In this document: piece after piece, positions 16,145-31,460 of the stretch
Numbering within the stretch: the first letter of the stretch is position 1
Layout of the letters: each line of letters opens with the position of its first letter
From: Catenuloplanes indicus
Lineage (GTDB): Bacteria > Actinomycetota > Actinomycetes > Mycobacteriales > Micromonosporaceae
Direction: 5' to 3'
Assembly (NCBI RefSeq): GCF_030813715.1
Contig: NZ_JAUSUZ010000001.1
Location: 8,724,501 to 8,788,500, forward strand
Length of the DNA: 64,000 nucleotides
Translations under genes and position numbers: made by a program
The notes under the pieces: generated by a model
What the model was told of the DNA's origin: nothing
Databases searched by the model: none
The model's input: only the letters and a program-made list of their open reading frames with translations

Positions 16145-16582
16145 CCGGCACGTCGGTTCAACGGGCTGCACGCGTACTTCCTGGTCGCCCCGGACGGTTC
16201 GCGGCGCGCGTTCCGCTACAGCTGGCTGCCGGACGCGGGCGAGGCGACGCTCACCGCCGGCGACCAGCGCCCGCCGCACTACCTGATCGACGAGATGCTG
16301 CAGCGCGGTACGGCGTCCTGGTCGCTGGTGTTCACGCTGGCCGAACCGGGCGACCCGACCGACGACGTGACCGCCCGGTGGCCGGACTCCCGCGAGACGG
16401 TCACGGCCGGCACGCTGCGCCTCGACTCCGCGGCCGAGGACCAGGCCGCGCTCGATGCGACCGTCTTCGACCCGGCCGGCGTCGTCCCCGGCATCGAACT
16501 CTCCGACGATCCGATCCTGCACTTCCGCTCCCAGGTCTACGGCGAGTCCTTCACCCGCCGTACCCGAGAGGAACGTCCCTGA
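16145..16582 (+). pseudogene. Catalase-family peroxidase, C-terminal fragment
   Basis: The frame ending at 16582 reads [28 protein letters not shown], then DQRPPHYLIDEML, VFTLAEPGDPTDDVTARWPDSRETVTAG and FDPAGVVPGIELSDDPILHFRSQVYGESFTRRT. This is the C-terminal half of small heme catalase-like peroxidases. An in-frame stop lies at 16142 and the heme-binding and catalytic N-terminal half is absent, so it cannot be functional as it stands. It abuts the truncated chemoreceptor. Confidence 0.7.
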
Positions 16583-16623: not shown

Positions 16624-19443
16624 TCAGGCGCAGTCACCCGGCTGAGCCGGCACGCTGTGCGCGGGCGCGGGGCCGCCGCCGGCCAGTCGCTGCCGGATGG
16701 TCTCCGCCTCGGGATCGTCGAGTTCGACGAAGCTCTCCAGCGCGGCCCGCCAGGCGGCGTGTGCGGAGTCCGGCGAGCCGTTGGCGTGGTGGGCGTCGCC
16801 GAGGTTCGCCAGTGCTTTGGCCTCGCCGTGGCGGTCGGCGAGTTCGGTGCGCAGGGCCAGGCCTCGCTGGTACGCGTGCACCGCGTCGCGCGGCCGGCCC
16901 CGATGCAGGTGGGCGTAGCCGAGGCTGTCCCAGGTGGCGGCCTGACCGACCCGGTCGTCGAGTTCCTCCAGCAGCGTCAGTGCCTCGCCGCAGAATCGCA
17001 GGCACCGCTCGTGATCGCCGAGTACGGCGTGACTCCAGCCGATGATGTTGAGCGCGCGGGCCTGGCCGGGCAGGTGGCCGGCGTCGCGGTAACCGGTCAG
17101 GGCCAGTTCCGCGTGCCGCAGCATGTCCCGATGGCGGCCCAGGCTGTCACAGACCCATGCCAGGCTGTTGTGCACCTGTGCCTGCCCGAGACGGTCTCCC
17201 CCGGAGGTGAACAGGTCCAGCGCCGTCATCAGGTGCGTGTGCCCGGTCCTGCACCGTCCGAGCCGGACGTTGGCGGCCGCCAGGCCGCGCAGAACATGGG
17301 CCTGGGCGGGACGGTCGCCGAGCCGTCGTGCCGACGTCAGCGCGGTGCCGCCGGCGGCGAGCCAGTCGTGCCAGTGCCCGCGACGGTCGAGGAAGGTGGC
17401 CATGGCCCAGACGAGCTTCCACGCGTGTTCGTCGAAGTGGTGCTTCGCCGCGACGTCCACGGCGGCCAGGAGGACCGGGCGTTCGGTCCGGAACCACTCC
17501 ATGGCCGCGGCCGGGTCCGGGATCGGTGCGCACGCCCGCGGGGACCGGATGTGGTCGACGGAGTCGCGGTGCGGGTGCAGCACCCGGGCGGCCTGCACCG
17601 CCGTTGCCAGGTAGTGGTCGAGCAGGCGGCCGAGGGCGGCTCTTCTGTCCTCCGGCGGCTCGGAGCGCTCGGCGAGCTCGTGCGCGTAGGCGCGCAGCAG
17701 GTCGTGGAAGGCGAACCGGCCGGGTAGCCGCTCGGTGATCAGATAGGCCTGGGTCAGCTCCGCCAGCGCCGCCGCGGTCTCGGCGTCGCCCCAGGTGGTC
17801 ATCCGGGCGACCGCCGAGGTGGCGATCTCCGGTCCGATGATCGTGTCCAGCTGCCGGAACAGGCGCGCGGCGGGTGCGGTGAGCAGCCGGTACGACCAGG
17901 AGAAGACGGCCCGGACGTCGGTGCTGACGTCCCCTGTGACCAGTCCTCCGGTGCGGTTGACCTCGGCGGCCAGCGATTCGAGCGGGAACTGCGGGTTCAT
18001 GGCGGCGCGGGCGGCGACGACGGACAGGGCGAGCGGCAGGCCCGCGCACCGCCGGATGATCATCTCGGCCGCCTCCGGTTCGGCCGAGACCCGCTGCGCG
18101 CCGACGCGGCGCGCGAGGAGCTGCTGCGCCTCCCGCCGCGACAGCCTGTCCAGTGTCATCGGGATGGCGCCACCGGTCGCGACGAGACCGTGCAGTTGCC
18201 GCCGGCTGGTGACCACCACGACGCACCGGGCGGAGCCGGGCAGCAGCTGCGCGATCTGGGTGGCGTCGCGTGCGTTGTCGAGGACGATGAGCGCCTGCCG
18301 GCCGGCCAGCAGGCTCCGGTAGAGACCGGTCTGCGCGTCCGCGTCGTCCGGGATCTTCTCCGGCGGTACGCCGAGCGCGGCGAGGAAGCCGCGGATCGCC
18401 GCGTGCGGCTGCATCGGCGGCCCGGCCGGGTCGAAACCGCGGAGGTTGACGTAGAGCTGGCCGTCGGGGAACCGCGCGGCGACCCGATGCGCCCAGTGCA
18501 GCGCCAGTGCGGTCTTGCCGATCCCGGGAGGTCCGCCGACGGTGACGATCCTGATGCCCGGTGGCCCGGCGCGTTGCTGGTCCAGCATCGCGTCGAGGCG
18601 GGCGAGCTCACCGATCCGGCCGGTGAACCCGGCGAAGTCCGCCGGCAGCTGCGCCGGGGTCGGATGCCCGGGATCCGGCGGCGGGGCCGAGGTGCCGGAT
18701 GCCTCACCGCGGAGCACCTCGTGGTGCGCGCGACGCAGCTCCGGGCCGGGATCGGTGCCGAGGTCCTCGGCGAGCTGTCGTCGTACCGTGGTGTAGCAGT
18801 CCAGAGCCTCCGCGGTACGCCCGTCCGCCTGCAGCGCGGCCATCAGCCGGGCCGCGAGCGGTTCGACGTGCGGCATGTCGGCCAGCGCCGGGCGCAGCGT
18901 GTCGATGACCAGGCGGTGCCCGCCGGTACGCAGCTGTGCCTCGGCCCACGCGAGCAGCGTGTCCAGGCGTTGCTGCCGGAGGGTCTCCCGGACCCGGGCC
19001 GACCAGTCGCTGCCCAGGCCGCCGAGCGGGTCGCCGCGCCACAGTCGCATGGCGTCGTGCAGGATCGCGGCGCGGCGGTGGTCGTCGTCGGCGTCCCGGG
19101 CGGCCGTGACGAGCGTGCGGAATCGGTGCAGGTCGACGGAGCCGGCGTCGAACTCGGCGACGTAGCCGCCGGAACGCCGCGTCACTGCCGGCCGGCCCGC
19201 ACCGTCCCGCGGCAGCGACGACAGCATCGTCCTGATCCGGCTGACGTGGGCGTAGAGCACCGCGCGGGCGCCATCGGGCGGTGCGCCACCCCACACCCGT
19301 TCGATCAGCGTCGGTACGCTCACCGGCCGTCCGGCGTCGACCATCAGCGCGGCGAGAACCTCGCGCTGCTTGACGGTGCCGAGCGGCACGGGACGTCCCT
19401 CGGCCCAGACCTCCACCGGCCCGAGAAGTCGGAAGTCGGCCAC
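16624..19443 (-). CDS. AfsR/SARP-type regulator (BTAD, NB-ARC, TPR)
   Basis: 939 residues if started at GTG 19443 (VADFRLLGPVEVWAEGRPV, the usual SARP start, with GGGGG upstream); the open frame extends to 19530. Order: winged-helix OmpR-like DNA-binding domain (about 1-95, KQREVLAALMVDAGRPVS), bacterial transcriptional activation domain (about 100-245, WRGDPLGGL, RLMAALQADGRTAEALDCY), NB-ARC ATPase (about 275-530, P-loop VGGPPGIGKTALALHW and ALIVLDNARD), and C-terminal TPR repeats (about 690-930). Such proteins activate adjacent secondary metabolite operons. It is divergent from the NRPS start, 108 bp away, so it is almost certainly the cluster-situated activator. Confidence 0.92.
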   Translation of the reverse strand: MADFRLLGPVEVWAEGRPVPLGTVKQREVLAALMVDAGRPVSVPTLIERVWGGAPPDGARAVLYAHVSRIRTMLSSLPRDGAGRPAVTRRSGGYVAEFDAGSVDLHRFRTLVTAARDADDDHRRAAILHDAMRLWRGDPLGGLGSDWSARVRETLRQQRLDTLLAWAEAQLRTGGHRLVIDTLRPALADMPHVEPLAARLMAALQADGRTAEALDCYTTVRRQLAEDLGTDPGPELRRAHHEVLRGEASGTSAPPPDPGHPTPAQLPADFAGFTGRIGELARLDAMLDQQRAGPPGIRIVTVGGPPGIGKTALALHWAHRVAARFPDGQLYVNLRGFDPAGPPMQPHAAIRGFLAALGVPPEKIPDDADAQTGLYRSLLAGRQALIVLDNARDATQIAQLLPGSARCVVVVTSRRQLHGLVATGGAIPMTLDRLSRREAQQLLARRVGAQRVSAEPEAAEMIIRRCAGLPLALSVVAARAAMNPQFPLESLAAEVNRTGGLVTGDVSTDVRAVFSWSYRLLTAPAARLFRQLDTIIGPEIATSAVARMTTWGDAETAAALAELTQAYLITERLPGRFAFHDLLRAYAHELAERSEPPEDRRAALGRLLDHYLATAVQAARVLHPHRDSVDHIRSPRACAPIPDPAAAMEWFRTERPVLLAAVDVAAKHHFDEHAWKLVWAMATFLDRRGHWHDWLAAGGTALTSARRLGDRPAQAHVLRGLAAANVRLGRCRTGHTHLMTALDLFTSGGDRLGQAQVHNSLAWVCDSLGRHRDMLRHAELALTGYRDAGHLPGQARALNIIGWSHAVLGDHERCLRFCGEALTLLEELDDRVGQAATWDSLGYAHLHRGRPRDAVHAYQRGLALRTELADRHGEAKALANLGDAHHANGSPDSAHAAWRAALESFVELDDPEAETIRQRLAGGGPAPAHSVPAQPGDCA

Positions 19444-19551
19444 ATCCACCCCCGCTGTCGCCTGCACCAATTGTTCTGTCCTGGGCGGGCACGGGCGCAA
19501 GGTTCCCGCAAGCTTTTGACACATAGCCATTCATCAGGCTGGGGAGGTTGC
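19444..19551. promoter_or_regulatory. Divergent promoter region of the biosynthetic cluster
   Basis: This 108-bp gap separates the regulator from the first biosynthetic gene. A TTGACA word at 19516-19521 could be a -35 element for the NRPS operon, and GGGGAGG at 19541-19547 is a strong ribosome site for its ATG at 19552. Clear SARP heptamer repeats were not identified by eye. Confidence 0.45.
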
Positions 19552-22500
19552 ATGGCGGCGCGGTACATCGACGCTGCGCCCGCACCGACGACGGGGGACA
19601 GACGAATGGTGCGAAACGGTGGGGACCCGCGTGCGCTCGTGACGGAGCTGGTCCAGGCCCGGGTACGCGAGTACCCGGAACGCACGGCGCTGCGGGACGG
19701 GGATTCGGAGGTCACCTACGGGCAGCTGAACGCGCGTGCGAACCGGCTGGCTCACTGGCTGCGAGAGCGGGGCGTGGGCCCGGAGCGGGTCGTGGCCGTG
19801 CACCTCGGCCGGGGCGCCGGCTACGTCACGGCGGCCCTGGCCGTGCTCAAGGCGGGCGGGGCGTACCTGCCGATCGATCCGGCCAATCCGGAGGCCCGGG
19901 TCGCGGCGATGACCGCCGGCACCGGGGCCGGGCTGGTGCTGTGCGGCACCGAACATGCCGGGCGGCTGCGTGCGGCCGGCGTCGAGCCGGTGTCGCTCGA
20001 CGCGATCGTGCTGGACGGACTGCCGGACGACGATCCGGAGCCCGGCCCGCTCCCCGGCGACCTGGCCTACGTGGTCCACACCTCCGGCTCGACCGGGGCA
20101 CCGAAGGGCGTCATGGTCACCCACGGCGCGCTGGCGGCCTTCCTCGCCTCGATGGGGCGTGCCTACGATGTGCGTCCGGCCGACCGGCTCGCCCTGGTCT
20201 GCTCGCCCAGCTTCGACGTGTCGGTCTCGGAGCTGTGGCTGCCGCTCGCCGCGGGCGCGTCGATCGACGTGCCGCCGGCCGAGACGGTGGTGTCGCCCGT
20301 GGCCGTCGTGCGCTGGCTGGCGGACCGCGGGATCACGATGACCGTGCTGCCGACGCCGCTGGCGGAGCGGGCGCTGCAGGAGCGATGGCCGGAGCGGTCG
20401 GCGCTGCGGGTGCTGAACACCGGCGGTGACCGCCTGCACGTGCGGCCGTCGGCTGACCACCCGTTCGTCATGATCAACAACTACGGCCCGACCGAGAACA
20501 CGGTGATCTCCACATTCGGTGTGGTGCGGCCGTCGCACGGTGCGGACCCCGCGTTGCCGACCATCGGCCGGCCGGTGCCGGGCACCACCGTCGAGCTGCT
20601 GGACGGCGAACTGCGCCCGGTCGCGGACGGCGAGACCGGCGAGATGTATCTCGGGGGTGACCAGCTGGCCCGCGGTTACGCCGGACGGGCGGACCTGACG
20701 GCCGACCGGTTCGTGCCGCACCCACGGCCGCGGTACCCGGGGGAGCGGCTGTACCGCTCCGGCGACCTGGCCCGGCGTACCGGCACCGGGGAGATCGAGT
20801 TCGTGGGCCGCGGTGACGACCAGGTCAAGCTCCGTGGGCACCGCATCGAGCTGGGCGAGGTGGTGGCCGCGCTGCGCTCCTGCCCCGGCGTGGCGGACGC
20901 GTACGTGCTGCCCCGGCGCGACGGCGGCGAGGACCGCCTGATCGCCTACCTGGCCCCGGCCGACCTGCGCCGTGTCCCCGCCGCGGCGCAGCTGCGCGCG
21001 TGGCTCGCCGAGCGCCTGCCGCAGTACATGATCCCCGCGGCCTTCGTGGTCCTGGAGTCGCTGCCGGCCGGCACGAACGGCAAGGTGGACCGTGCCGCGC
21101 TGCCCGATCCGGTGTTCGGCGCCGGCCCGGCCGCGACGGAGGCGCCACGCTCGGCCACCGAGAAGGTGATCGCGGCGATCTGGCGGGAGGTCCTGCACGT
21201 CGCGCGGGTCGGCCGCACGGACAGCTTCGTCGATCTCGGCGGGCACTCGCTGATGGCCACCCAGATCGTGGCCCGGGTCCACGAGGTCCTCGACGCGCCG
21301 GTGACCGTCGGCGACCTTTTCCGCGCACCCCGGCTGGATGCCTTCGCCCACGCGGTGGAGCAGGTGCGGCACTCCGGACGGCCCGGCTGGCTACCGGCGC
21401 TCGAGCCCGGCTCGGGGCCGCTCGTGGCTCCGCTGTCGGTGCCGCAGGAGCAGGTCTGGTTCATCGGCAAGCTCGCGCCGGGCAACACCGCCTACCACGC
21501 GCAGGCGACGATCCGGGTCACCGGCCCGTTCGACACCGGCGTCTTCGCCGGCGTGCTGACCGAGATCGTGCGCCGTCACGAGAGCCTGCGGACCGCGTTC
21601 GAGGAGCACGACGGTCGGCCCCGCCAGACGGTGCTCGCTCCCTCGGCGTACCCCCTGAGGGTCGTCGACCTGGGCGGCGTACCGCCGGCCGAGCGCGAGG
21701 AGCGCCTGGCCGAGGAGATCGACGCGGAGATGCGGCGTCCCTTCGATCTGAGCCGCCCGCCGCTGAGCCGCTGGACCGTGGTCCGGCTGGGACCGGACGA
21801 ACACGAACTGATCATGGTGGAGCATCACTTCGTCCACGACGGCTGGTCGTTCTCGGTGCTGATGCGCGAGATGGAGGAGATCTACGGCGTGCTCGCCGGC
21901 GGCGGGACCCCGGTCGCGGCACCGGACCGGGCGCAGTACCGCGACTTCGTGGCGTGGCAGCAGGATCTGATCGACTCCGGCCGGCTCCGGCCACAGCTGG
22001 AGTTCTGGCGACACCGCCTGGCCGGTGTGACCGCACTGCCGCTGCCGACGGACCGGCCCAGGCCGACCACGCAGACGTTCCGTGGGCGGGTGCTGCGCCT
22101 GGAGACCTCCGCCGGTCTCGCCCGGCAGATCGCCCGCCTCGGCCGGGCCGAGGGGGTGAGCCGGTTCATGACGATGTACGCGGCGTTCACCGCGCTGCTG
22201 CACCGGTACACCGGCGCCACCGATCTCTGCTTCGCCAGCGGGTTCGCCAACCGCCGGCTGCGTGAGCTCGAGGACGTGATCGGCATGATCGTCAACCCGG
22301 TGGCGCTCCGGCTGGACGTGCGTCCGTCCGAATCGTTCCGGGACCTGCTGGCCCGCGCCCGTGACACCGTGCTGGAGGCGGCCGAGAACCAGGAGTCGCC
22401 GTTCCCGCTCGTGGTCCGCCAGCTCGGCCTGGAACGGGACCCGTCCCGTAACCCGCTCACCCAGATCATGTTCAGCGCGCACGACTCCGCGGTGCGCAAC

Positions 22501-24654
22501 CCGCGGTTCGGCACCGCGACCGGAACCGTCTTCGAGCGCAGCAACAGCACCTCTAAGGTGGACCTGAACATCATCGTCGTACCGCGGGCGGCGGGGCGGC
22601 TCGGCGCGGCCGACTACGCCGACGAGCGGATCACCGTGCTGTGGGAGTACAACAGCGACCTGTTCGACGCCGCCACCATGCACGCGCTCGCCGACGCGTA
22701 CTTCCGCCTGCTCGGCGCCGCGGTGGAGCGGCCCGGCACCGCGATCACCGACCTGCCCGTCCTCAGCGACACGCAGCTGCGCGCGCTGCTGGTCGACGAC
22801 AACGCCGCCGAGCGGCGCGCGGTGCCGCACACCGCGCCGTCGGTCGCCAGGCTGGTGGAGGCGCGGGCGGCCGCGGACCCCGGGGCGGTCGCGGTCGACG
22901 ACGGCGAGCGCGTACTCACCTACGGGGAACTGGACGCGGAGGCGAACCGGCTGGCCGGTGCGCTGCGCGCGCTCGGCGCGGGCCGGGAGGACGTGATCGG
23001 TGTGCTCCTGCACCGCTCGTGTGCGCTACCGGTGGCCGAGCTGGCGGTGCTGAAGTCCGGTGCGGCGTTCCTGCCCGTCGACCCGGCGCACCCGGACGAG
23101 CGCGTACGCCGGATCCTGGACGACGCGGGCGCCCGCGCGCTGCTCACGACGACGGCGCTGGCCGGCCGTCCCTGCGCCGCGGACCGGGCGGTCATCGCCG
23201 TCGACGCGCCACCGGAGGCCGCGCCGGCGACCGCGGTGCGGACCGGTCCGGACGATCTCGCATACGTCATCTACACCTCCGGGTCGACCGGACGGCCGAA
23301 GGGCGTGCTCATCCAGCAGCACTCGTTCGCCAACCTGGTCACCTGGCACGCCGCACGCTTCGCGCTGGGACCGGCCGACCGCACCACCGGCGTCGCCTCG
23401 CCGGGCTTCGACTTCTCCCTCTGGGAGCTGTGGCCGACCCTGGTCTCCGGCGGCAGCGTCCACCTGCCGCCCGACGAGACGCTGCTGTCGTCGCCGGAGC
23501 TGCGGCGGTGGCTGGTGCGGCAGCGCATCACGGTCACGCTGTTGCCGACGCCACTGGCCGAGCCACTGCTGGACTCGCCCTGGCCGGAACCGGGCAGCCT
23601 GCGGGTACTGCACGCCGGGGGTGACCGGCTGACGGTCCGTCCGCCGGACGGCCTCGGCTTCGAGGTGTTCAACACCTACGGACCGACAGAGAACACGATG
23701 ATCTCGACGACCGGGCCGGTGGCACCCCGCCCGGCGGACGGCACGCTGCCGCACATCGGCACGCCGATCGACGGCACCGGGGCATACGTACTCGACGGCG
23801 AGCTGAACCTGGTGCCCGAGGGGGCGGTCGGCGAACTCTACCTGGCCGGCGTGGGCCTGGCGCGTGGCTACCTCGGCCGTCCCGACCTGACCGCCGACCG
23901 GTTCGTGCCGCACCCGTTCCCCGCAGAGCCGGGCCAGCGCCTCTACCGCACGGGTGACCTCGTGCGACGTCTCGCGGACGGCTCGCTGGCCTTCCTCGGC
24001 CGTGCCGACGCCCAGGTCCAGATCCGCGGTCACCGCATCGAGCCCGCCGAGGCCGCAGCCGCGCTACGGGAGCACCCGTCGGTCGGTGAGGTGCACGTCG
24101 CCGCCGACACCGATCCGGACACCGGGCGAACGGAGCTGGTCGCCTGGGTGACGCCGGTGCCGGGCGCGGCGCCGCCGGAGGCGCCGGTGCTGCGCGCGTA
24201 CCTCGGCCGTGTGCTGCCCGCCTACCTCGTGCCGGGCGCCTACGTCGTCCTCGGCCGGCTGCCGCTGACCCGCAACGGCAAACTGGACCGGACGGCCCTG
24301 CCCCGCCCCCGGCGGGACACCGCGGCCGGCCCCGCGCCCGCCGGCGAGACCGAGGGGCGGCTGGCGTCGATCTGGGCCGAGGTGCTCAAGGTCGACCGGG
24401 TCGGCGCCGACGACAACTTCTTCGACCTCGGCGGGCACTCGCTGCTGCTGGCCGAGGTGCACCGGCGGATCGTGACCGACCTCGGCCGACGTCCACCGCT
24501 CGTCAGTCTGCTGACCCATCCGACCGTACGGTCGCTCGGCCGTTTCCTCGACTCGGCGGCACCGGAGCCCGCGGACGATCCGCGGCCGGCGAGCCGGGAT
24601 CGGCTGCGCGCCCAGCGGTCCCGGCGGCGCCCGGCCGAGGACGGCGCCCGATGA
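19552..24654 (+). CDS. Dimodular NRPS: A-PCP-C-A-PCP
   Basis: 1700 residues. A1 (about 25-515): TSGSTGAPKGVMV, NNYGPTENT, YRSGDLARR, VKLRGHRIELGE, NGKVDRAAL. PCP1 (about 530-600): DLGGHSLMAT. Condensation domain (about 615-1050): HHFVHDG at residues 758-764, complete motif. A2 (about 1085-1590): TSGSTGRPKGVLI, NTYGPTENT, VQIRGHRIEPAE, NGKLDRTAL. PCP2: DLGGHSLLLAE near 1626. There is no leading C domain, so module 1 loads a free amino acid, and no thioesterase or epimerase. Hand-read specificity codes are DVSVNGNVIK for A1 and DFWLHGTMIK for A2; I do not assign substrates. The stop overlaps the PKS start (ATGA), implying the dipeptidyl chain passes to the PKS module. Confidence 0.95.
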   Translation: MAARYIDAAPAPTTGDRRMVRNGGDPRALVTELVQARVREYPERTALRDGDSEVTYGQLNARANRLAHWLRERGVGPERVVAVHLGRGAGYVTAALAVLKAGGAYLPIDPANPEARVAAMTAGTGAGLVLCGTEHAGRLRAAGVEPVSLDAIVLDGLPDDDPEPGPLPGDLAYVVHTSGSTGAPKGVMVTHGALAAFLASMGRAYDVRPADRLALVCSPSFDVSVSELWLPLAAGASIDVPPAETVVSPVAVVRWLADRGITMTVLPTPLAERALQERWPERSALRVLNTGGDRLHVRPSADHPFVMINNYGPTENTVISTFGVVRPSHGADPALPTIGRPVPGTTVELLDGELRPVADGETGEMYLGGDQLARGYAGRADLTADRFVPHPRPRYPGERLYRSGDLARRTGTGEIEFVGRGDDQVKLRGHRIELGEVVAALRSCPGVADAYVLPRRDGGEDRLIAYLAPADLRRVPAAAQLRAWLAERLPQYMIPAAFVVLESLPAGTNGKVDRAALPDPVFGAGPAATEAPRSATEKVIAAIWREVLHVARVGRTDSFVDLGGHSLMATQIVARVHEVLDAPVTVGDLFRAPRLDAFAHAVEQVRHSGRPGWLPALEPGSGPLVAPLSVPQEQVWFIGKLAPGNTAYHAQATIRVTGPFDTGVFAGVLTEIVRRHESLRTAFEEHDGRPRQTVLAPSAYPLRVVDLGGVPPAEREERLAEEIDAEMRRPFDLSRPPLSRWTVVRLGPDEHELIMVEHHFVHDGWSFSVLMREMEEIYGVLAGGGTPVAAPDRAQYRDFVAWQQDLIDSGRLRPQLEFWRHRLAGVTALPLPTDRPRPTTQTFRGRVLRLETSAGLARQIARLGRAEGVSRFMTMYAAFTALLHRYTGATDLCFASGFANRRLRELEDVIGMIVNPVALRLDVRPSESFRDLLARARDTVLEAAENQESPFPLVVRQLGLERDPSRNPLTQIMFSAHDSAVRNPRFGTATGTVFERSNSTSKVDLNIIVVPRAAGRLGAADYADERITVLWEYNSDLFDAATMHALADAYFRLLGAAVERPGTAITDLPVLSDTQLRALLVDDNAAERRAVPHTAPSVARLVEARAAADPGAVAVDDGERVLTYGELDAEANRLAGALRALGAGREDVIGVLLHRSCALPVAELAVLKSGAAFLPVDPAHPDERVRRILDDAGARALLTTTALAGRPCAADRAVIAVDAPPEAAPATAVRTGPDDLAYVIYTSGSTGRPKGVLIQQHSFANLVTWHAARFALGPADRTTGVASPGFDFSLWELWPTLVSGGSVHLPPDETLLSSPELRRWLVRQRITVTLLPTPLAEPLLDSPWPEPGSLRVLHAGGDRLTVRPPDGLGFEVFNTYGPTENTMISTTGPVAPRPADGTLPHIGTPIDGTGAYVLDGELNLVPEGAVGELYLAGVGLARGYLGRPDLTADRFVPHPFPAEPGQRLYRTGDLVRRLADGSLAFLGRADAQVQIRGHRIEPAEAAAALREHPSVGEVHVAADTDPDTGRTELVAWVTPVPGAAPPEAPVLRAYLGRVLPAYLVPGAYVVLGRLPLTRNGKLDRTALPRPRRDTAAGPAPAGETEGRLASIWAEVLKVDRVGADDNFFDLGGHSLLLAEVHRRIVTDLGRRPPLVSLLTHPTVRSLGRFLDSAAPEPADDPRPASRDRLRAQRSRRRPAEDGAR

Positions 24655-27641
24655 CCGCGCCGGAGTACCCGGAGGACAACGCGTTCATCGCCGTGATCGG
24701 CATGGCCGGCCGGTTCCCCGGCGCCGCCGATGTGGACGCGTTCTGGCACGCCCTCCGCCGGGGTGACGAGTCGGTGCGCCCGGTGCCCGCCGGTGCCCCG
24801 GTCGCCGGATTCACCCCGGCGCACGGGGTGCTCGACGGCGCCGACGAGTTCGACGCCGACCACTTCGGATACGCCCCGAACGAAGCCATGATCATCGACC
24901 CGCAGCAGCGGCTCTTCCTGGAGTGCGCGCACGAGGCGCTGGAACGCGCCGGCTACGGCGCGCCACCGGGACGCGGCCGGGTCGGTGTCTTCGCCGGCGG
25001 CTCCACCACCGACTACCGCGCGGTCCTGCAGTCCCGGCTGGCCGATCTGCCGTTCGTCGACGAGTGGCAGCTGCGTCTGGCGACGGCGCCGGACTTCCTG
25101 GCCACCCGTGCCGCGTACAAGCTGGGTCTGCACGGCCCGGCGGTGGCCGTGCAGACCGCCTGCTCCACGTCGCTGGTCGCGGTGCACCTGGCGATGCAGG
25201 CGCTGCTGGCCGGCGAGTGCGACACGGCCCTCGCCGGCGGCGCGGCCGTGCACGTGCCGCACCCGAGAATCGCCTACACCGAGGGCGGCATCCTCTCGCC
25301 GGACGGCCACTGCCGGGCCTTCGACGCGGACGCCCGCGGCACGGTCGGCGGCAGCGCGGTCGCGGTGGTGCTGCTCAAACCGCTGTCCGACGCGCTGCGC
25401 GACGGTGACCACGTGCACGCGGTGCTGCGCGGCTCGGCCATCAACAACGACGGTGCCGGCAAGGTGGGTTTCACCGCACCGAGCGTCGCCGGGCAGGCCC
25501 GCGTGGTGCGGGCGGCGCACCTGGTCGCCGACGTCGACCCGGACAGCATCACCTACGTCGAGGCACACGGCACCGGTACGCCCCTGGGTGACCCCGTCGA
25601 GATCGCCGCACTGACCGAGGCCTTCCGGCGTGGCACCCAGCGACGCGGGTACTGCGCCATCGGCTCGGTCAAGACCAACATCGGTCACACCGACGCGGCC
25701 GCCGGTGTCACCGGGCTGATCAAGACGGTTCTCGCCGCCGAACACGGCTATCTGCCGCCCAGCCTGCACTTCCGGGCACCGAACCCGGAGATCGACTTCG
25801 CCGGTTCGCCGTTCGTCGTCAACGCCGCCGGCCGTCCGTGGGAGCCCGACGGCATCCCACGCCGGGCCGGCGTCAACGCGCTGGGCGTCGGCGGCACCAA
25901 CGCCCACGTCATCGTCGAGCAACCTCCGGCACGTCCACCGGCCCCGGCCGTGCGCGCCTGGCACCTGCTGCCGCTGTCCGCGCGCACCCCCTCGGCGCTG
26001 GCCGCGACGGGTGACCGCCTCGCCGGCGCGCTCACGGCCGGCCGGCACGAACTCAGCGACGTGGCGTGGACCCTGCAGACCGGGCGGGCCGCGCATCCAC
26101 GACGTACGTACGTGGTCGCCCGCGACGCGGTCGAAGCGGCCGCGGCGCTGCGTGGACTGCCGGCGGGTCCCGACCCGGAATCCGGCGTCACCACCGGCGG
26201 CGCGGTCGCCACCGGCACGGCACCCGAGGTCGTCTTCCTCTTCCCCGGCCAGGGCAGCCAGCACGTCCACATGGGACGCGGCCTCTACGAACAGGAGCCG
26301 GTGTTCCGGCGCCACCTCGACGAGTGTGCGCGGGCCGCCGAGCCGGTCCTCGGCTTCGACCTGCGTGCGGTGCTCTATCCGCCGGCCGGCGACGAAGTGG
26401 CCGAGAAGCGGGCACGGGACCTGCTCGGCGGCATCGAGACCGGGCAGCCGGCCGTGTTCGCCGTCGAGTACGCACTTCTGCGGCTGCTCACCGACTGGGG
26501 CGTGACGCCGACCGCGGTCGCCGGGCACAGCCTCGGCGCGTTCGCCGCCGCCTGCGCGGCCGGCGTCCTCTCCGGCGCGGACGCGGCCCGGCTGGTCGCC
26601 ACCCGCGGAATGCTGCTCGGCACCCTGCCCGCCGGGACGATGCTGGCCGTCCGGCAGCCCGAGGCCGAGGTCGCGGCGTCGCTGCCGCCGGGGCTGACCG
26701 TGGCGGCGGTCAACGGGCCCGGTCAGTGCACCGTCTCCGGACCCGCCGCGCTCACCGTCGCCTTCGCCGGCGAACTGGCCCGGCGGGGGGTGGAGGCGCG
26801 GGTACTGCCGATCGCCACGGCCGGTCACTCCCCGCTGGTGGAACCGATCCTGGACACGTTCCGGCAGGCCGTCGAGTCCGTCACGCTGCGGGAACCGGCC
26901 GTGCCGCTGCTGTCGGACACCAGCGGTGACTGGGCCGGCCCGTCGGAGGTGGCGAGCGCCGGATACTGGGCCAGGCATCTGCGGGCCCCGGTGCGCTTCG
27001 ACCGGGTACTGTCGCGGCTCGGCGAGACACCGGACCGGATCCTCCTCGAGATCGGGCCCGGCCGGACGCTGAGCACCCTGGCCCGTCAGCACCCCGGCTG
27101 CCGAGCGCGCGCGGTGCGGACCCTGCCGCACCCGGCCGAGCGGACCCCGGAACAGGCCGTCGTGCTCGCGGCGGTCGGCGAGCTGTGGTCCGCCGGAGTC
27201 GGTGTCCGCTGGCCCCGGATGCACGAGGGCCGGCCGGCACGCCGGGTGGTGCTGCCGACGTACCCGTTCGAACGGCGTCGCTACCTGGTGTCGCCGGCCG
27301 GTCCGCCGGCCGTCGCGGCGGACGCCGGTCCGCCACTGCTCAACGGCGACGCCGCACCGTCCGCACCCGAGCCGCAGGAGCCCACGCCGGGCGACCGACC
27401 GGCCGATCCGGTCGAGGCGCAGGTGCGCACCGCGTTCCGGCAGGCACTCGGCGTCGCCCAGCTGACCGGCGCGGACGACTTCTTCGAGCTGGGCGGCGAC
27501 TCGATCACCGCCACGAAACTGGCCGCATGGGCCCGCGGCACGTTCGGCGTGCCGGTCAGCGCCGTACACGTGCTCCGCACCCGCACCGCCGCGTCACTCG
27601 CGGCCCACATCCGCGCCGGACTGTCCGGCGTCACGACCTAG
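24651..27641 (+). CDS. Type I PKS module: KS-AT-ACP
   Basis: 996 residues. KS (about 12-430) has the full triad Cys171 (QTACSTSLVA), His306 (VEAHGTGTPLGDP) and His346 (KTNIGHTDAAAG). AT (about 525-830) has Ser627 in GHSLG and His726 in ATAGHSPLVEP. ACP (about 910-990) has Ser951 in LGGDSITATK. There is no ketoreductase, dehydratase, C-methyltransferase or thioesterase, so the extended unit stays a beta-keto acyl-ACP. The TAGH motif replaces HAFH (malonyl) or YASH (methylmalonyl); XAGH motifs are associated with ethylmalonyl and other unusual extenders. The module receives a peptide from the coupled NRPS and needs an external release step. Confidence 0.95.
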   Translation: MTAPEYPEDNAFIAVIGMAGRFPGAADVDAFWHALRRGDESVRPVPAGAPVAGFTPAHGVLDGADEFDADHFGYAPNEAMIIDPQQRLFLECAHEALERAGYGAPPGRGRVGVFAGGSTTDYRAVLQSRLADLPFVDEWQLRLATAPDFLATRAAYKLGLHGPAVAVQTACSTSLVAVHLAMQALLAGECDTALAGGAAVHVPHPRIAYTEGGILSPDGHCRAFDADARGTVGGSAVAVVLLKPLSDALRDGDHVHAVLRGSAINNDGAGKVGFTAPSVAGQARVVRAAHLVADVDPDSITYVEAHGTGTPLGDPVEIAALTEAFRRGTQRRGYCAIGSVKTNIGHTDAAAGVTGLIKTVLAAEHGYLPPSLHFRAPNPEIDFAGSPFVVNAAGRPWEPDGIPRRAGVNALGVGGTNAHVIVEQPPARPPAPAVRAWHLLPLSARTPSALAATGDRLAGALTAGRHELSDVAWTLQTGRAAHPRRTYVVARDAVEAAAALRGLPAGPDPESGVTTGGAVATGTAPEVVFLFPGQGSQHVHMGRGLYEQEPVFRRHLDECARAAEPVLGFDLRAVLYPPAGDEVAEKRARDLLGGIETGQPAVFAVEYALLRLLTDWGVTPTAVAGHSLGAFAAACAAGVLSGADAARLVATRGMLLGTLPAGTMLAVRQPEAEVAASLPPGLTVAAVNGPGQCTVSGPAALTVAFAGELARRGVEARVLPIATAGHSPLVEPILDTFRQAVESVTLREPAVPLLSDTSGDWAGPSEVASAGYWARHLRAPVRFDRVLSRLGETPDRILLEIGPGRTLSTLARQHPGCRARAVRTLPHPAERTPEQAVVLAAVGELWSAGVGVRWPRMHEGRPARRVVLPTYPFERRRYLVSPAGPPAVAADAGPPLLNGDAAPSAPEPQEPTPGDRPADPVEAQVRTAFRQALGVAQLTGADDFFELGGDSITATKLAAWARGTFGVPVSAVHVLRTRTAASLAAHIRAGLSGVTT

Positions 27642-27653
27642 AGAGGTACGACG

Positions 27654-27860
27654 ATGTTCGAGGACGACGGGGACCGCGAGTACGTCGTGGTCCGCAACAC
27701 CGAGGAGCAGTACTCGATCTGGCCGGTGCGGCAGGCACTGCCACCGGGATGGCAGCGCGCCGGGCGCACCGGCCCGAAGGCCGACTGCCTGTCCGAGATC
27801 GCCGAGCTCTGGACCGACCTGCGCCCCCGCAGCGCCCGTGCGGCGCAGGAGCGACGGTGA
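27654..27860 (+). CDS. MbtH-like protein
   Basis: 68 residues. NTEEQYSIWPVRQALPPGWQ and LSEIAELWTDLRPRSA contain the invariant N-E-Q-S-WP, P-GW and WTD-RP residues of the MbtH family. These small chaperones bind A domains and are often needed for their solubility and adenylation activity. Placed 12 bp after the PKS gene, it presumably serves A1 and/or A2 of this cluster. The stop overlaps the GTG of the thioesterase gene. Confidence 0.95.
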   Translation: MFEDDGDREYVVVRNTEEQYSIWPVRQALPPGWQRAGRTGPKADCLSEIAELWTDLRPRSARAAQERR

Positions 27861-28609
27861 CCGGCACCTCTCGCTGGCTGAGCCGCCACCGGGACGCTCA
27901 GCCGGCCGCGGTGACGCTGTACTGCTTCCCGCACAGCGGCGCGACCACCGCCGAGTACCTGCAGTGGACGCCGTCCCTGCCCGGGCTGTCGGTCCACGGC
28001 GTTAACCTCCCGGGCCGTGGCGCACGGTTCGACGAGGCACCGCTCACCACCATGCCCACGCTGGTGCGGGCGCTGGCCGACGAGGTGCGCTTCGAGGCAC
28101 CCTGCGTGTTCTTCGGCCACAGCCTCGGTGCGTTCGTCGCCTACGAGACGGCCCGCGAACTGCGTCGGCGAGGGCGGGAACTGCCGGGCGTACTGGTGCT
28201 CTCGGCCGCCCCCGCCCCGCACGTGCCCCGGACGGCGCCACGTCTGAGCGACCAGCCCGACGCACGCCTGCTCGCCGAGATCGGCGCGCGGTACGGCGGT
28301 CTTCCGCCCGGCCTGGCCGCAGACCCCGACCTGCTGCAGCTGGTGCTCCCACCGCTGCGCGCCGACCTCGCGATACTGGAGGACTACGCGCCGGGCGACA
28401 CCCCACCGATCGACGTGCCGTTCGTGGCGGTCGGCGGGGACCGCGACGGAATCGGCCGGGACGACCTGCGGGGCTGGGCCCGGCACACCAGCGCCGGCTG
28501 CCGCACCGTGTTGCTGCCCGGCGGGCACTTCTACTTCCGGGACGACCCCACCGGGCTGCTGGACCTCCTGCGGCAGACCGTGCCCACCGCGGCCGGGACC
28601 CTACGGTGA
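27857..28609 (+). CDS. Type II thioesterase
   Basis: 250 residues from GTG 27857 (GTGA overlap with the MbtH gene). LYCFPHSGATTAEYLQW near residue 22, VNLPGRGARFDEAPL near 50, FFGHSLGAFVAYETAREL with Ser89, and LLPGGHFYF with His224 define an alpha/beta hydrolase thioesterase of the RifR/GrsT group. Its usual job is hydrolysis of mis-primed carrier proteins. As the assembly line has no terminal TE, it could also release the product. It overlaps the next gene by 4 nt. Confidence 0.93.
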   Translation: MTGTSRWLSRHRDAQPAAVTLYCFPHSGATTAEYLQWTPSLPGLSVHGVNLPGRGARFDEAPLTTMPTLVRALADEVRFEAPCVFFGHSLGAFVAYETARELRRRGRELPGVLVLSAAPAPHVPRTAPRLSDQPDARLLAEIGARYGGLPPGLAADPDLLQLVLPPLRADLAILEDYAPGDTPPIDVPFVAVGGDRDGIGRDDLRGWARHTSAGCRTVLLPGGHFYFRDDPTGLLDLLRQTVPTAAGTLR

Positions 28610-30243
28610 GCGGCCTGCTGACCGGGATCCGCCGCGGGACGCTCGACTGGGACCTGCTGCGACCGTTCCCCGCACCGGACCCGGCCGAGCTGGCCGCGGC
28701 CGACGACGCCGCCACCGATCTGACGGTCCTGCTGGACGGGTTGCTGGACCCGGACGACGCCGACCTGACCCGGACCCTGCCACCGCAACTCGTGCCGAGC
28801 CTCGCCGCCAAGGGTTTCCTGCGGCTGACCCTGCCCGAATTGGACGGCGGCCTCGGCCTGGGCCCGTTCGGCATGTTCCGCACGCTCGCGGCCGCGTCCG
28901 GCAGGTCCGCGGCCGTCGGGCTGCTGCTCGCCGTGCACAATGCCCTGAGTCTTCCCGCATACCTGCCGGTGCTGCCGCCGGGCCCGCTGCGGGATCTCGT
29001 CCTGGCCCGGCTGGCGGACGGTACCGTCTTCGGAGTCGCCGACACCGAGCCGGCCGGGGCCGCCAACACGGCCAGGAACACGGTGGCGGTGCCGACCGCG
29101 GACGGCCGCGGCTACCTGTTGACCGGGGAGAAGACCTTCATCGGCAACGGGCGCATCGCGGGGCTGCTCGCCGTCACCGCGACGGTCCTCGACACCGGAC
29201 CCGAACGCGTCGATCTGTTCGTGGTGGACACCGCGGCCGAGGGTTTCTCGGTCGCGGCCGCACACGATTTCCTCGGCCTCGCCGGGGCGCCGAGCGCGGC
29301 GCTGCGTCTCGACGGCGTGTTCGTGCCGGCCCACCGGGTGCTGGTGACCACCGACGGGGGATGGCGATCGTCGCCCGCCGTCACCGGCATCAACGCCCTC
29401 GCCCGGATGTGCATCACGGTGGCACCCGCGGCCGCGATCGCCCGGTCATGCGTCGGCTGGACCAGGGACTTCCTCGGCCGCCGCGCGATCGACGGGCGTC
29501 CGCTGGCCGGCTACGAGGCGGTCCGCCGCCGCGCGGCCGCCTCCGCCGCCGAACTGTTCGCGCTGGACAGCGTCGTGCGGTGGTGCCTGCTCGGGCCCGG
29601 TGACCGCACGCCCGAAATGGTCTCCGCCAAGAACATCGGCACGGTCCTCGCCTGGCGGGTGGCGGAACGGACCATGTCGCTGTTCGGCGCGGAAGGCTAC
29701 GAGACCGCCACCAGCAAGGCACGCCGCGGGGTTCCTCCGGTCCCGCTGGAACGGGCGCTGCGCGACGTCCGCGGCCTCCGCATCGCCGGAGGCGTCGACT
29801 TCTCCGTCGACCTGCGGTCCGCCCGGGGCGCCATCCTCCCGCCGTACCGATCCGGTGAACTGCCGCCGCCGGGACGGCCCGCTGCCGCGGCGCACCCGCC
29901 CGGTTCCGCGCTCGCGCCGGCCGCGCGCTACCTCGACCGGCAGGCGCACGAGTTCGCCGTCCGGTGCGCGCGGCTCACCCGGGACAGCACCGCCTCCGAA
30001 CTCGTCGAACGGCAGGACACCCTCATCACGCTCAGCCGGCTGGCCGACGAACTGTTCACCATGGCGGTCGTCCTCGGCCGGGCCGGCGGACCGGCCGAGA
30101 CCGCGCTCGCGGAGACCTACTGCGCGCACGCCCGCAACCGGACAGCTGCCCTGTGCCGTGTCCTGGACACCCCCGCCGACGACGCCCACGACCGACTGGG
30201 CCGCGCATGGCTCGCCGGCGACCTCGACCATCTGCTGATGTGA
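28606..30243 (+). CDS. Acyl-CoA dehydrogenase homologue of the NRPS-PKS cluster
   Basis: 545 residues from GTG 28606. The ACAD fold is clear: VADTEPAGAANTARNTVAV, LTGEKTFIGNGRIAGLLAVTA, RRAIDGRPLAGYEAVRRR and MSLFGAEGYET. It is about 150 residues longer than simple ACADs at the C-terminus. Where many ACADs have the catalytic Glu in an I-EGT motif, this protein reads IAGGVDF, with Gly395 at that place, so ordinary alpha,beta-dehydrogenation of a CoA ester is doubtful. Flavoproteins of this fold (EpnF/EpxF/TmcF) turn beta-keto acids from NRPS-PKS lines into enones or epoxyketones. By context a similar decarboxylation/oxidation of the released beta-keto acid is plausible; this is inference. Single-flavin soluble enzyme expected. 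Confidence 0.85.
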   Translation: MSGLLTGIRRGTLDWDLLRPFPAPDPAELAAADDAATDLTVLLDGLLDPDDADLTRTLPPQLVPSLAAKGFLRLTLPELDGGLGLGPFGMFRTLAAASGRSAAVGLLLAVHNALSLPAYLPVLPPGPLRDLVLARLADGTVFGVADTEPAGAANTARNTVAVPTADGRGYLLTGEKTFIGNGRIAGLLAVTATVLDTGPERVDLFVVDTAAEGFSVAAAHDFLGLAGAPSAALRLDGVFVPAHRVLVTTDGGWRSSPAVTGINALARMCITVAPAAAIARSCVGWTRDFLGRRAIDGRPLAGYEAVRRRAAASAAELFALDSVVRWCLLGPGDRTPEMVSAKNIGTVLAWRVAERTMSLFGAEGYETATSKARRGVPPVPLERALRDVRGLRIAGGVDFSVDLRSARGAILPPYRSGELPPPGRPAAAAHPPGSALAPAARYLDRQAHEFAVRCARLTRDSTASELVERQDTLITLSRLADELFTMAVVLGRAGGPAETALAETYCAHARNRTAALCRVLDTPADDAHDRLGRAWLAGDLDHLLM

Positions 30244-30260
30244 CCGGGAAGGACACCGCC

Positions 30261-31460
30261 ATGCCGGCCAGACCCACGCTCCTGCTCCTCGCACTCGGCG
30301 CGTTCGCCGTGGGCACCGACAACCTGGTGGTCAACGGTGTGCTGGCATCGATCGCGGTCTCGATGGACGTGCCGGAGGCCGCGGCCGGACAACTCGTCAC
30401 CGTCTTCGCCCTGGTCTACGCGGTCGGTGCGCCCGTACTGGCCGTGATCACCGCCGATCTCTCCCGGCGGGTGCTGCTGACCGCCTCGATGGCCGCCTTC
30501 GTGGCCGGCAACGCGCTCGCGGCGCTCGCACCCACCTTCGGCACGCTCATGGCCGGCCGGGTCCTCTCCGCGCTGGCGGCCGCCTGCTACATGGGCCCGG
30601 CCATGGCCGCCGCGGCGGCGCTCGTCCCGGCCAGTCACCGGGGACGAGCGCTGGCGCTGGTCGGCGGCGGGCTCACGGTCGCCACCGCGCTCGGTGTCCC
30701 GCTCGGCACACTCCTCGGTCACCTCGGTGGCTGGCGGCTCACCTTCACCGCGGTGGCGGTCATCGCGGCGATCGCGGCGGCCGGCATCGGCACGCGGCTG
30801 CCACCGGTGCCGAACCCGCCGACCGCCGGCCTCGCCGCGCGGGTCCGCGTGGCCGGGCGCAGCCCCGTGCTGCTCGGCCTGGCCGCCAACACGGCGACCG
30901 TGGCGGGTACGTTCGCGCTGTTCACCTACATCGGGCCGCTGAGCCTGCGGGAGACGCCGATCGGTGCCGCGTTCACCGTGGTCCTGCTGGCCTGGGGGCT
31001 GGCCGCGGTGGCCGGGAACCATCTCGGTGGCCGGTGGACGGACACGTTCGGCGCCGACCGGACCCTGACGACCGGCATGCTCGGCGTCGCCCTGGTGCTC
31101 GCCGCCATCAGTCTGCTGACCGTCGTCATTCCCCCGGACCGGGCGGTGGGCGTGCCGTTGCTGCTGCTCGCCGTAGCCGCACTGGGCGTGACGTCGTGGG
31201 CGCTTCCGGCAGCCCAACTGCACCGCATGGTCGGGCTCGCGCCGGAGTCCGCCGCCGTGATGTCCTCACTGAACAGCTCCGCCACCTACCTCGGGCTGGC
31301 GCTCGGCGGCGCACTGGGCGGTCTCACGCTCGCCGTCGCGTCCCCGTCCGCGCTGGGCTGGATCGGAGCTCTGCTGCAACTGCCGGCGATCGCACTGGTC
31401 GCCGCCTCCCGCCACCGGCGGAACGCCACCGCCCGGCCAGACCACGCCGGCGCACACTGA
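30261..31460 (+). CDS. MFS drug/metabolite exporter (DHA1-like)
   Basis: 399 residues with about 12 membrane segments. LLALGAFAVGTDNLVVNGVLASIA at the start and LMAGRVLSALAAACYMGPAMAAAAALVPASHRGRALALVGGGLTVATALGVPLGTLLG (motif C-like) fit DHA1 antiporters of the Cmx/AraJ type. GGGAAGGA stands before the ATG. It is 17 bp after the dehydrogenase gene and closes the operon, so it likely exports the cluster product and may give self-resistance. Confidence 0.9.
   Translation: MPARPTLLLLALGAFAVGTDNLVVNGVLASIAVSMDVPEAAAGQLVTVFALVYAVGAPVLAVITADLSRRVLLTASMAAFVAGNALAALAPTFGTLMAGRVLSALAAACYMGPAMAAAAALVPASHRGRALALVGGGLTVATALGVPLGTLLGHLGGWRLTFTAVAVIAAIAAAGIGTRLPPVPNPPTAGLAARVRVAGRSPVLLGLAANTATVAGTFALFTYIGPLSLRETPIGAAFTVVLLAWGLAAVAGNHLGGRWTDTFGADRTLTTGMLGVALVLAAISLLTVVIPPDRAVGVPLLLLAVAALGVTSWALPAAQLHRMVGLAPESAAVMSSLNSSATYLGLALGGALGGLTLAVASPSALGWIGALLQLPAIALVAASRHRRNATARPDHAGAH

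What the first reader, a model, noticed from the sequence alone, without database searches (positions are those of the whole stretch)
16624..31460. Small NRPS-PKS cluster with hallmarks of a ketone-warhead pathway
Seen: a SARP regulator divergent from a coupled A-PCP-C-A-PCP, KS-AT-ACP, MbtH, TEII, ACAD-type, MFS set, with no terminal thioesterase, KR or C-methyltransferase. Known: NRPS-PKS lines that end in a beta-keto acid processed by a dedicated ACAD-fold flavoenzyme make epoxyketone proteasome inhibitors (EpnF/EpxF/TmcF), and related enzymes act in vinyl-ketone-type pathways. Inference: the product is a free-amine dipeptide extended by one substituted malonate, released and decarboxylated/oxidised to an enone or related electrophile. 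No P450, methyltransferase or acyl-starter C domain is present, so it would be smaller than known epoxyketones.
Basis: partly seen in the sequence, partly recalled or inferred. Interest (0 to 1): 0.9.

Follow-up and report, generated by a model that had tools for sequence, protein, structure and literature searches.

The report
Ureido-dipeptide vinyl-ketone gene cluster
This stretch of an actinomycete genome carries a compact set of genes that probably makes a very small protease-inhibitor-like molecule: two amino acids joined back-to-back through a urea and ending in a reactive vinyl ketone, a relative of the recently described compound threopeptin.

Summary
Its flavoenzyme belongs to the EpxF/MatG/SnaO warhead family, not to fatty-acid ACADs: best solved match EpxF, 389 bits against 71 for the next. 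Two parts of the interpretation change. (1) The C domain carries EHHFVHDG, the published signature of ureido-forming C domains, and groups (SH-aLRT 100) with SnaA's experimentally shown ureido domain. The core is therefore a urea-linked head-to-head dipeptide with a free carboxylate, not a free-amine dipeptide. (2) EpxF Ser406, needed for epoxidation (S406A stops at the enone; PMC12624316), is Ala394 here, and also Ala in MatG and SnaO, whose published pathways give vinyl ketones. So a vinyl ketone is predicted, not an epoxyketone. Gene order matches the threopeptin (sna) cluster of Stackebrandtia nassauensis, except that no SnaE (PEARL) gene is present and the adenylation codes are not SnaA's. 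It is a new, PEARL-less member of a known kind. The Ser/Ala split across 73 family rows is not discussed in the paper text I saw (searches) and could make warhead type predictable from sequence. No chemistry supports this yet.

The parts
16624..19530 (-). SARP/AfsR-like transcriptional regulator (968 aa), divergent from the operon
   Evidence: Pfam BTAD, Trans_reg_C, NB-ARC, TPR; NCBIfam AfsR 491 bits, below its cut-off
19552..24654 (+). NRPS A1-PCP-C(ureido)-A2-PCP, 1700 aa; C motif EHHFVHDGWS from residue 757; codes A1 DVSVNGNVI, A2 DFWLHGTMI
   Evidence: Pfam; motif; C-domain tree; codes by alignment, positions recalled
24651..27641 (+). PKS module KS-AT-ACP, 996 aa; AT motif IATAGHS as in MatO
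   Evidence: Pfam; AT motif; active sites
27654..27860 (+). MbtH-like protein
   Evidence: Pfam PF03621, 4.7e-18
27857..28609 (+). stand-alone thioesterase (type II), SnaD-like; proposed release enzyme
   Evidence: Pfam PF00975, 6e-38; a stand-alone TE sits directly before the ACAD in L118, L062, L093 and L116 too
28606..30243 (+). EpxF/MatG/SnaO-family flavoenzyme; Arg267 (=EpxF Arg273), Ala394 (=EpxF Ser406), Gly395 where FadE-like rows have Glu
30261..31460 (+). MFS exporter, probable efflux of the product
   Evidence: Pfam MFS_1, 9e-37

Best explanation
The operon builds a ureido-linked dipeptidyl vinyl ketone. All steps are inferred for this organism; the precedents named are experimental or proposed in the papers cited. 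(1) A1 and A2, helped by MbtH, load two amino acids; their codes suggest uncharged side chains. (2) The C domain joins the two amines through a carbonyl, probably from bicarbonate (as in SylC, proposed for SnaA), so residue 1 ends as a free carboxylate cap and residue 2 stays on PCP2. (3) KS-AT-ACP adds one methylmalonyl unit, giving an alpha-methyl-beta-ketoacyl-ACP. (4) The stand-alone thioesterase hydrolyses it to the beta-keto acid. (5) The flavoenzyme decarboxylates it using Arg267 and oxidises the enolate to the vinyl ketone. It stops there because Ala replaces the Ser that EpxF needs for the flavin-hydroperoxide epoxidation. (6) The MFS protein exports HO2C-CHR1-NH-CO-NH-CHR2-CO-CH=CH2, which should tend to cyclise (ureido N onto ketone) as threopeptin does and could trap protease Ser/Cys residues.
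For: Gene order A-T-C-A-T / KS-AT-T / MbtH / TE / ACAD is the same in the sna cluster (L118) and in L062, L093 and L116 (sna work in PMC11212132). C motif EHHxxHDG in 16 of 16 distinct clusters of the A-T-C-A-T + KS-AT-T + TE + ACAD kind, and in 0 of 7 of the C-A-T kind with a separate A-T. In the window's own genome 1 of 22 readable C motifs has it (30 of 41 C-domain matches were read), this cluster's own. C tree with the two diagnostic residues masked: window in an 18-row clade with SnaA, SH-aLRT 100. Flavoenzyme: EpxF is the top sequence and structure hit; 73 family rows split from 6 FadE-like rows, SH-aLRT 100; residue 406 is Ala in window, MatG and SnaO, Ser in EpxF; Arg273 kept in 71 of 73 rows. 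AT motif TAGHS as in MatO, where feeding showed methylmalonyl as the source (PMC5719088 passages). cMT in 0 of 28 Ala-type and 7 of 18 Ser-type clusters with a readable module.
Against: No chemistry has been done on this organism. The Ser/Ala rule rests on one proven epoxidase (EpxF, with its S406A mutant) and two pathways that give vinyl ketones (MatG, SnaO); EpnF and TmcF sequences were not in hand. Nine other alignment columns also separate the EpxF clade from MatG, SnaO and the window. The ureido motif and Ala do not always go together: of the 22 clusters with a motif-bearing C domain, the ACAD residue is Ala in 15, Ser in 6 (L051, L058, L078, L086, L088, L116) and Thr in 1 (L093). The window's ACAD is 35% identical to SnaO, less than to EpxF (44%); its nearest neighbour in the quick tree (L037) is a flagged long-branch join. 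L037's C domain sits in the ureido clade without the Glu of the motif, so clade membership alone does not prove ureido formation. Neither A-domain code could be assigned to an amino acid.
Confidence: 0.7

Rival explanations
1. One reading: an ordinary amide-linked dipeptide with a free N-terminal amine, extended by one malonate and turned into an enone.
For: A-PCP-C-A-PCP is also the plainest amide-forming layout; [quoted passage not shown] one relative (L037) sits in the ureido clade without the full motif.
Against: C motif EHHFVHDG is the ureido signature, found in no C domain of another function in MIBiG according to PMC11212132; the window C domain groups with SnaA's.
Confidence: 0.1
2. 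The flavoenzyme goes on to epoxidise, so the product is a small (ureido) epoxyketone proteasome inhibitor.
For: Enzyme belongs to the EpxF family; 11 of 18 Ser-type clusters with a readable module also lack cMT, so lack of cMT alone does not exclude an epoxide.
Against: Ala394 at the position whose Ser-to-Ala change abolishes epoxidation in EpxF; window lies outside the 23-row EpxF clade (22 Ser, 1 Thr); no proteasome gene in the cluster, the two PF00227 matches of the genome lie 0.8 Mb away.
Confidence: 0.12
3. The flavoenzyme is inactive or acts elsewhere, and the product is the decarboxylated ethyl ketone or its cyclised form.
For: Ethyl ketones and cyclised forms are made in the sna system without SnaO (PMC11212132).
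Against: Open frame overlapping the TE gene by 4 bases; Arg267 and fold kept.
Confidence: 0.1
4. The ACAD homologue is a fatty-acid beta-oxidation enzyme that merely sits beside an NRPS-PKS.
For: Three acyl-CoA dehydrogenase Pfam domains hit; second-tier matches are FadE-like.
Against: Separate clade; Gly in 72 of 73 family rows where 6 of 6 FadE-like rows have Glu, by recall the catalytic base; found beside the same kinds of module in relatives.
Confidence: 0.02

Closest known systems
Threopeptin (sna) cluster, Stackebrandtia nassauensis (PMC11212132)
   Same: Same gene order A-T-C-A-T, KS-AT-T, MbtH, TE, ACAD; ureido C-domain signature; KS-AT-T without cMT; Ala at EpxF-406
   Different: No SnaE (PEARL) gene, so no Thr cap; A-domain codes differ (SnaA DATAHGCVD / DVGDLGAVT, both Arg); a SARP gene is adjacent here; ACAD 35% identical
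MatG / matlystatin cluster, Actinomadura atramentaria (PMC5719088)
   Same: EpxF-like ACAD with Ala at 406; AT motif IATAGHS; vinyl ketone from methylmalonate
   Different: Hydroxamate acyl start, piperazic acid and a non-linear NRPS; the one C domain seen in L087 reads IHHIAFDG, not the ureido motif
EpxF / epoxomicin synthase (and EpnF, TmcF, sequences not seen)
   Same: Fold (TM 0.89-0.91), 44% identity to EpxF, Arg273, Gly where FadE-like rows have Glu
   Different: Ser406 is Ala here; the window PKS has no cMT and a TAGHS instead of HAFHS-type AT; window not in the EpxF clade
SylC (syringolin) and other ureido-forming NRPSs
   Same: Head-to-head amino-acid condensation through a bicarbonate-derived carbonyl (by signature, per PMC11212132)
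   Different: Different downstream assembly and warhead (recalled); not compared by sequence here

Membership tests
sna-type (threopeptin-like) cluster | A-T-C-A-T NRPS, KS-AT-T PKS, MbtH, stand-alone TE, ACAD in this order | tested here: met
sna-type (threopeptin-like) cluster | Ureido C-domain signature EHHXXHDG and grouping with SnaA C | tested here: met
sna-type (threopeptin-like) cluster | PEARL-like ligase SnaE | tested here: not met
   whole-genome search with SnaE matches only one frame, C1:764870-767371, fused into another NRPS
sna-type (threopeptin-like) cluster | Both A domains specific for arginine | tested here: inconclusive
   codes differ from SnaA's and hold no acidic residue beyond D235; substrates not assigned
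sna-type (threopeptin-like) cluster | Product a ureido dipeptide vinyl ketone | not testable with these tools
   needs expression and mass spectrometry
EpxF/MatG/SnaO flavoenzyme family | Sequence clade and fold distinct from fatty-acid ACADs | tested here: met
EpxF/MatG/SnaO flavoenzyme family | Arg273 for beta-keto acid decarboxylation | tested here: met
   Arg267
Epoxyketone synthase (EpxF/EpnF/TmcF) | Ser406 for epoxidation | tested here: not met
   Ala394
Epoxyketone synthase (EpxF/EpnF/TmcF) | Falls in the EpxF clade | tested here: not met
   (quick tree; the window row is a long branch)
Epoxomicin-type cluster | PKS with C-methyltransferase giving the gem-dimethyl beta-keto acid | tested here: not met
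Fatty-acid acyl-CoA dehydrogenase (FadE) | Catalytic Glu (its role recalled) | tested here: not met
   Gly395; Glu in 6 of 6 FadE-like rows

The most novel reading that the evidence does not exclude
One residue (EpxF 406) tells the enone-making from the epoxide-making branch across the whole warhead flavoenzyme family. The window shows a minimal form of the ureido vinyl-ketone pathway: six genes giving an acid-capped ureido dipeptide vinyl ketone with no tRNA-dependent (PEARL) step, one case of a ureido-plus-EpxF-like layout seen in actinomycetes, myxobacteria and one Bacteroidota genome.
Probability: 0.55. Interest if true: 0.6.

Novelty: new member of a known kind. Interest (0 to 1): 0.5.

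Why it matters
Together the two residue-level markers (EHHxxHDG in the C domain; Ser or Ala at EpxF 406) would predict both backbone polarity and warhead of an orphan cluster. The sister pair SnaO (Ala) and the L116 enzyme (Ser), in sna-like clusters of the same gene order, makes the rule directly testable with natural enzymes. If right, it would sort dozens of orphan clusters into vinyl-ketone and epoxyketone makers.

Tried and rejected
Considered and rejected: fatty-acid ACAD; epoxyketone synthase (Ala394); free-amine dipeptide; a PEARL acting in trans. For the last, SnaE used as query matches one frame in the genome, fused into another NRPS cluster about 1.2 Mb away if the contig is circular; PF04738 also marks a second, LanB-like gene at C1:3997362 that the SnaE query did not match. 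Disfavoured, not excluded.

Led nowhere: the codes of A1 and A2 match no code I recall, so substrates stay unassigned. Methyltransf_12 as a whole-genome marker for cMT was useless (54 of 54 genomes match); I replaced it by the AT-to-T gap (over 350 aa counted as cMT) and scanned the seven large gaps with Pfam, 7 of 7 methyltransferases; short-gap modules were not scanned one by one. Ser406 does not track cMT perfectly (11 of 18 Ser-type lack it). EpnF and TmcF sequences were not found. A plasmid search with the ACAD gave three Streptomyces records at 38-45% identity, not followed.

Papers: PMC11212132 parts 1-3 of 6 and passages; PMC12624316 parts 1-2 of 4 and a term search; PMC5719088 and PMC9943649 passages; other papers as listings only. 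No supplement was seen, so the residue rule may be shown in one.

Dropped before counts: the 73 family rows are 65 of the 66 loci (L042, on a 3.3-kb contig, left out), 6 of the 10 stretches (L110, L113, L114, L117 repeat L040, L062, L063, L093), the window and EpxF. 24 of the 72 rows other than EpxF had no readable AT-T module and are not in the cMT tally. Own-genome C-motif control: 30 of 41 matches read, 22 with a motif.
Full report
WHAT IS THERE. The finding's coordinates hold a tightly packed operon in open frames, divergent from a SARP/AfsR-like regulator (16624-19530, minus). NRPS 19552-24654 (A-PCP-C-A-PCP), PKS 24651-27641 (KS-AT-ACP), MbtH 27654-27860, stand-alone thioesterase 27857-28609, ACAD-fold protein 28606-30243, MFS 30261-31460. 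The motifs looked for in KS, AT, ACP, both PCPs, C and TE are present. Pfam finds no KR, methyltransferase or TE in the PKS. The neighbours scanned (GAF/MCP protein, catalase fragment, alpha/beta hydrolase, MFS proteins and others) look unrelated. The window lies in a 9.25-Mb genome. Its family set holds contigs of the same length as those of Micromonospora sp. C31, Actinorhabdospora, Actinoplanes xinjiangensis and Allorhizocola loci, so by inference it is in the Micromonosporaceae.

THE FLAVOENZYME. The best solved match is EpxF (9GN5), 389 bits; the next is 71 bits. An AlphaFold model (mean pLDDT 90.5) has 9GN5 as top fold match, TM 0.89/0.91. In a tree without the trait column, 73 family rows separate from 6 FadE-like rows with SH-aLRT 100. 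At the position after EpxF Ser406 all 6 FadE-like rows have Glu and the family has Gly in 72 of 73; I recall this Glu as the ACAD catalytic base. Chain index minus one gives the paper's EpxF numbering; Phe227, Arg299, His183, Arg273 and Ser406 all fit. Arg273, needed for decarboxylation, is Arg267 here and Arg in 71 of 73 rows. Ser406, whose change to Ala makes EpxF stop at the enone (PMC12624316), is Ala394 here.

THE SER/ALA SPLIT. Of 73 family rows, 29 have Ser, 38 Ala and 6 another residue at this place; the EpxF clade (23 rows) has 22 Ser and 1 Thr. MatG (L087) has Ala; its deletion abolished the congener thought to arise from a vinyl ketone (PMC5719088 passages). SnaO (L118) has Ala; it is needed for the enone of threopeptin and no epoxide was seen (PMC11212132). 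Among clusters with a readable PKS module, a C-methyltransferase (the gem-dimethyl, epoxomicin-type route) occurs in 7 of 18 Ser-type, 0 of 28 Ala-type and 0 of 2 Thr-type clusters. These rows are related and not independent. Ten columns separate the EpxF clade from MatG, SnaO and the window; 406 is singled out by the published mutant, not by the alignment. L116 (Ser) and SnaO (Ala) are sisters (SH-aLRT 100) in clusters of the same gene order, both with a SnaE homologue.

THE C DOMAIN. The motif is EHHFVHDGWS. PMC11212132 reports EHHXXHDG as the mark of ureido-forming C domains, with in vitro proof and mutants for SnaA. In the loci fetched, 16 of 16 distinct clusters of the A-T-C-A-T + KS-AT-T + TE + ACAD kind carry it: window, L118, L062, L093, L116, ten myxobacterial loci, and Aquimarina L078. 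None of the 7 clusters of the C-A-T kind with a separate A-T (L056, L060, L063, L082, L084, L097, L119) does. In the window's own genome only this C domain has it, among 22 readable motifs. With the two diagnostic residues masked, the window C domain falls in an 18-row clade with SnaA's (SH-aLRT 100); 17 of the 18 have the motif, the exception being L037. Five further motif-bearing C domains (L034, L051, L058, L086, L088) lie outside that clade. The chain therefore most likely starts with a urea: residue 1 points backwards with a free carboxylate. The motif does not fix the warhead: of the 22 motif-bearing clusters the ACAD residue is Ala in 15, Ser in 6 and Thr in 1.

THE EXTENDER AND RELEASE. 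The AT motif IATAGHS is identical to MatO's (L133). SnaB has AAHS. The cMT-type modules have HAFHS or RAFHS in the six of seven where a motif was read. Feeding traced the added unit of the MatO and SnaB products to methylmalonate/propionate. I infer methylmalonyl here. Release by the stand-alone TE is inferred from what is proposed for SnaD.

WHAT IT LACKS. No SnaE-like PEARL lies in the window. The SnaE query matches one frame of the genome (38-39% identity in the two long pieces), fused behind an A-T didomain in a separate NRPS cluster at C1:0.75-0.77 Mb. Among the 76 loci searched, SnaE homologues appear in L118 and L116 only; flanks reach 10 kb at most for most of them and some are cut by contig ends. 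The A codes DVSVNGNVI and DFWLHGTMI differ from SnaA's Arg codes and are not assigned. The nearest C domain (58-59% identity) and a like A2 code are in G776 (L111), where a further C-A-T module follows.

DISTRIBUTION. EpxF-like enzymes (E <= 1e-60): 9 of 394 genomes of the class sample by my count of the table, 2 of 397 of the order sample and 10 of 354 of the family set, own genome included each time; the four same-genus genomes listed have none. The genome-contig scan gave 66 loci. The best relatives of the window's enzyme are 46-48% identical, so no orthologous cluster was found in what was searched.

VERDICT. A real, probably functional, PEARL-less sna-type cluster, expected to make an acid-capped ureido dipeptide vinyl ketone. 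It works like the threopeptin pathway minus one step. It is not filed as an epoxyketone synthase cluster because Ser406 was tested and not met.

Noticed in passing
own genome G000:C1:754000-771000 (L120, L121), outside the window: A separate NRPS cluster in which a PEARL/lantibiotic-dehydratase-like region (PF04738) is fused behind an A-T didomain, with C-A-T modules and a reductase-like NAD_binding_4 domain. Possibly another tRNA-extended peptide.
   Followed up: partly
L116 (unnamed Micromonosporaceae genome): An sna-like cluster with SnaE homologue and an A2 code identical to SnaA's (Arg), but Ser at EpxF-406: predicted epoxyketone counterpart of threopeptin and natural sister of SnaO.
   Followed up: partly
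L035, L036, L038, L041, L043, L045, L046, L047, L094, L096; L078: Ureido-type clusters with EpxF-like enzymes in Corallococcus/Myxococcus (Ala) and in Aquimarina algiphila (Ser); A2 codes DPADLGQVT / DAADLGQIT hold a further acidic residue like SnaA's A2 code.
   Followed up: partly
L034, L056, L060, L062, L063, L082, L084, L086, L088, L093, L097: A recurring A-domain code DVENVGAIT/VT in EpxF-like clusters of both ureido and non-ureido kind; substrate unknown to me.
   Followed up: no
L089, L091: Family members with Ala in place of the decarboxylation Arg273 but Ser at 406; a different reaction is likely.
   Followed up: no
L037: A C domain inside the ureido clade with AHHILHDG (Glu lost, His kept), in a T-C-A-T-KS-AT-T protein.
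   Followed up: no
window 16295-16582 (+): Short ORF matching only an internal part of catalase (profile 271-338 of 383): a likely gene remnant next to the cluster.
   Followed up: no
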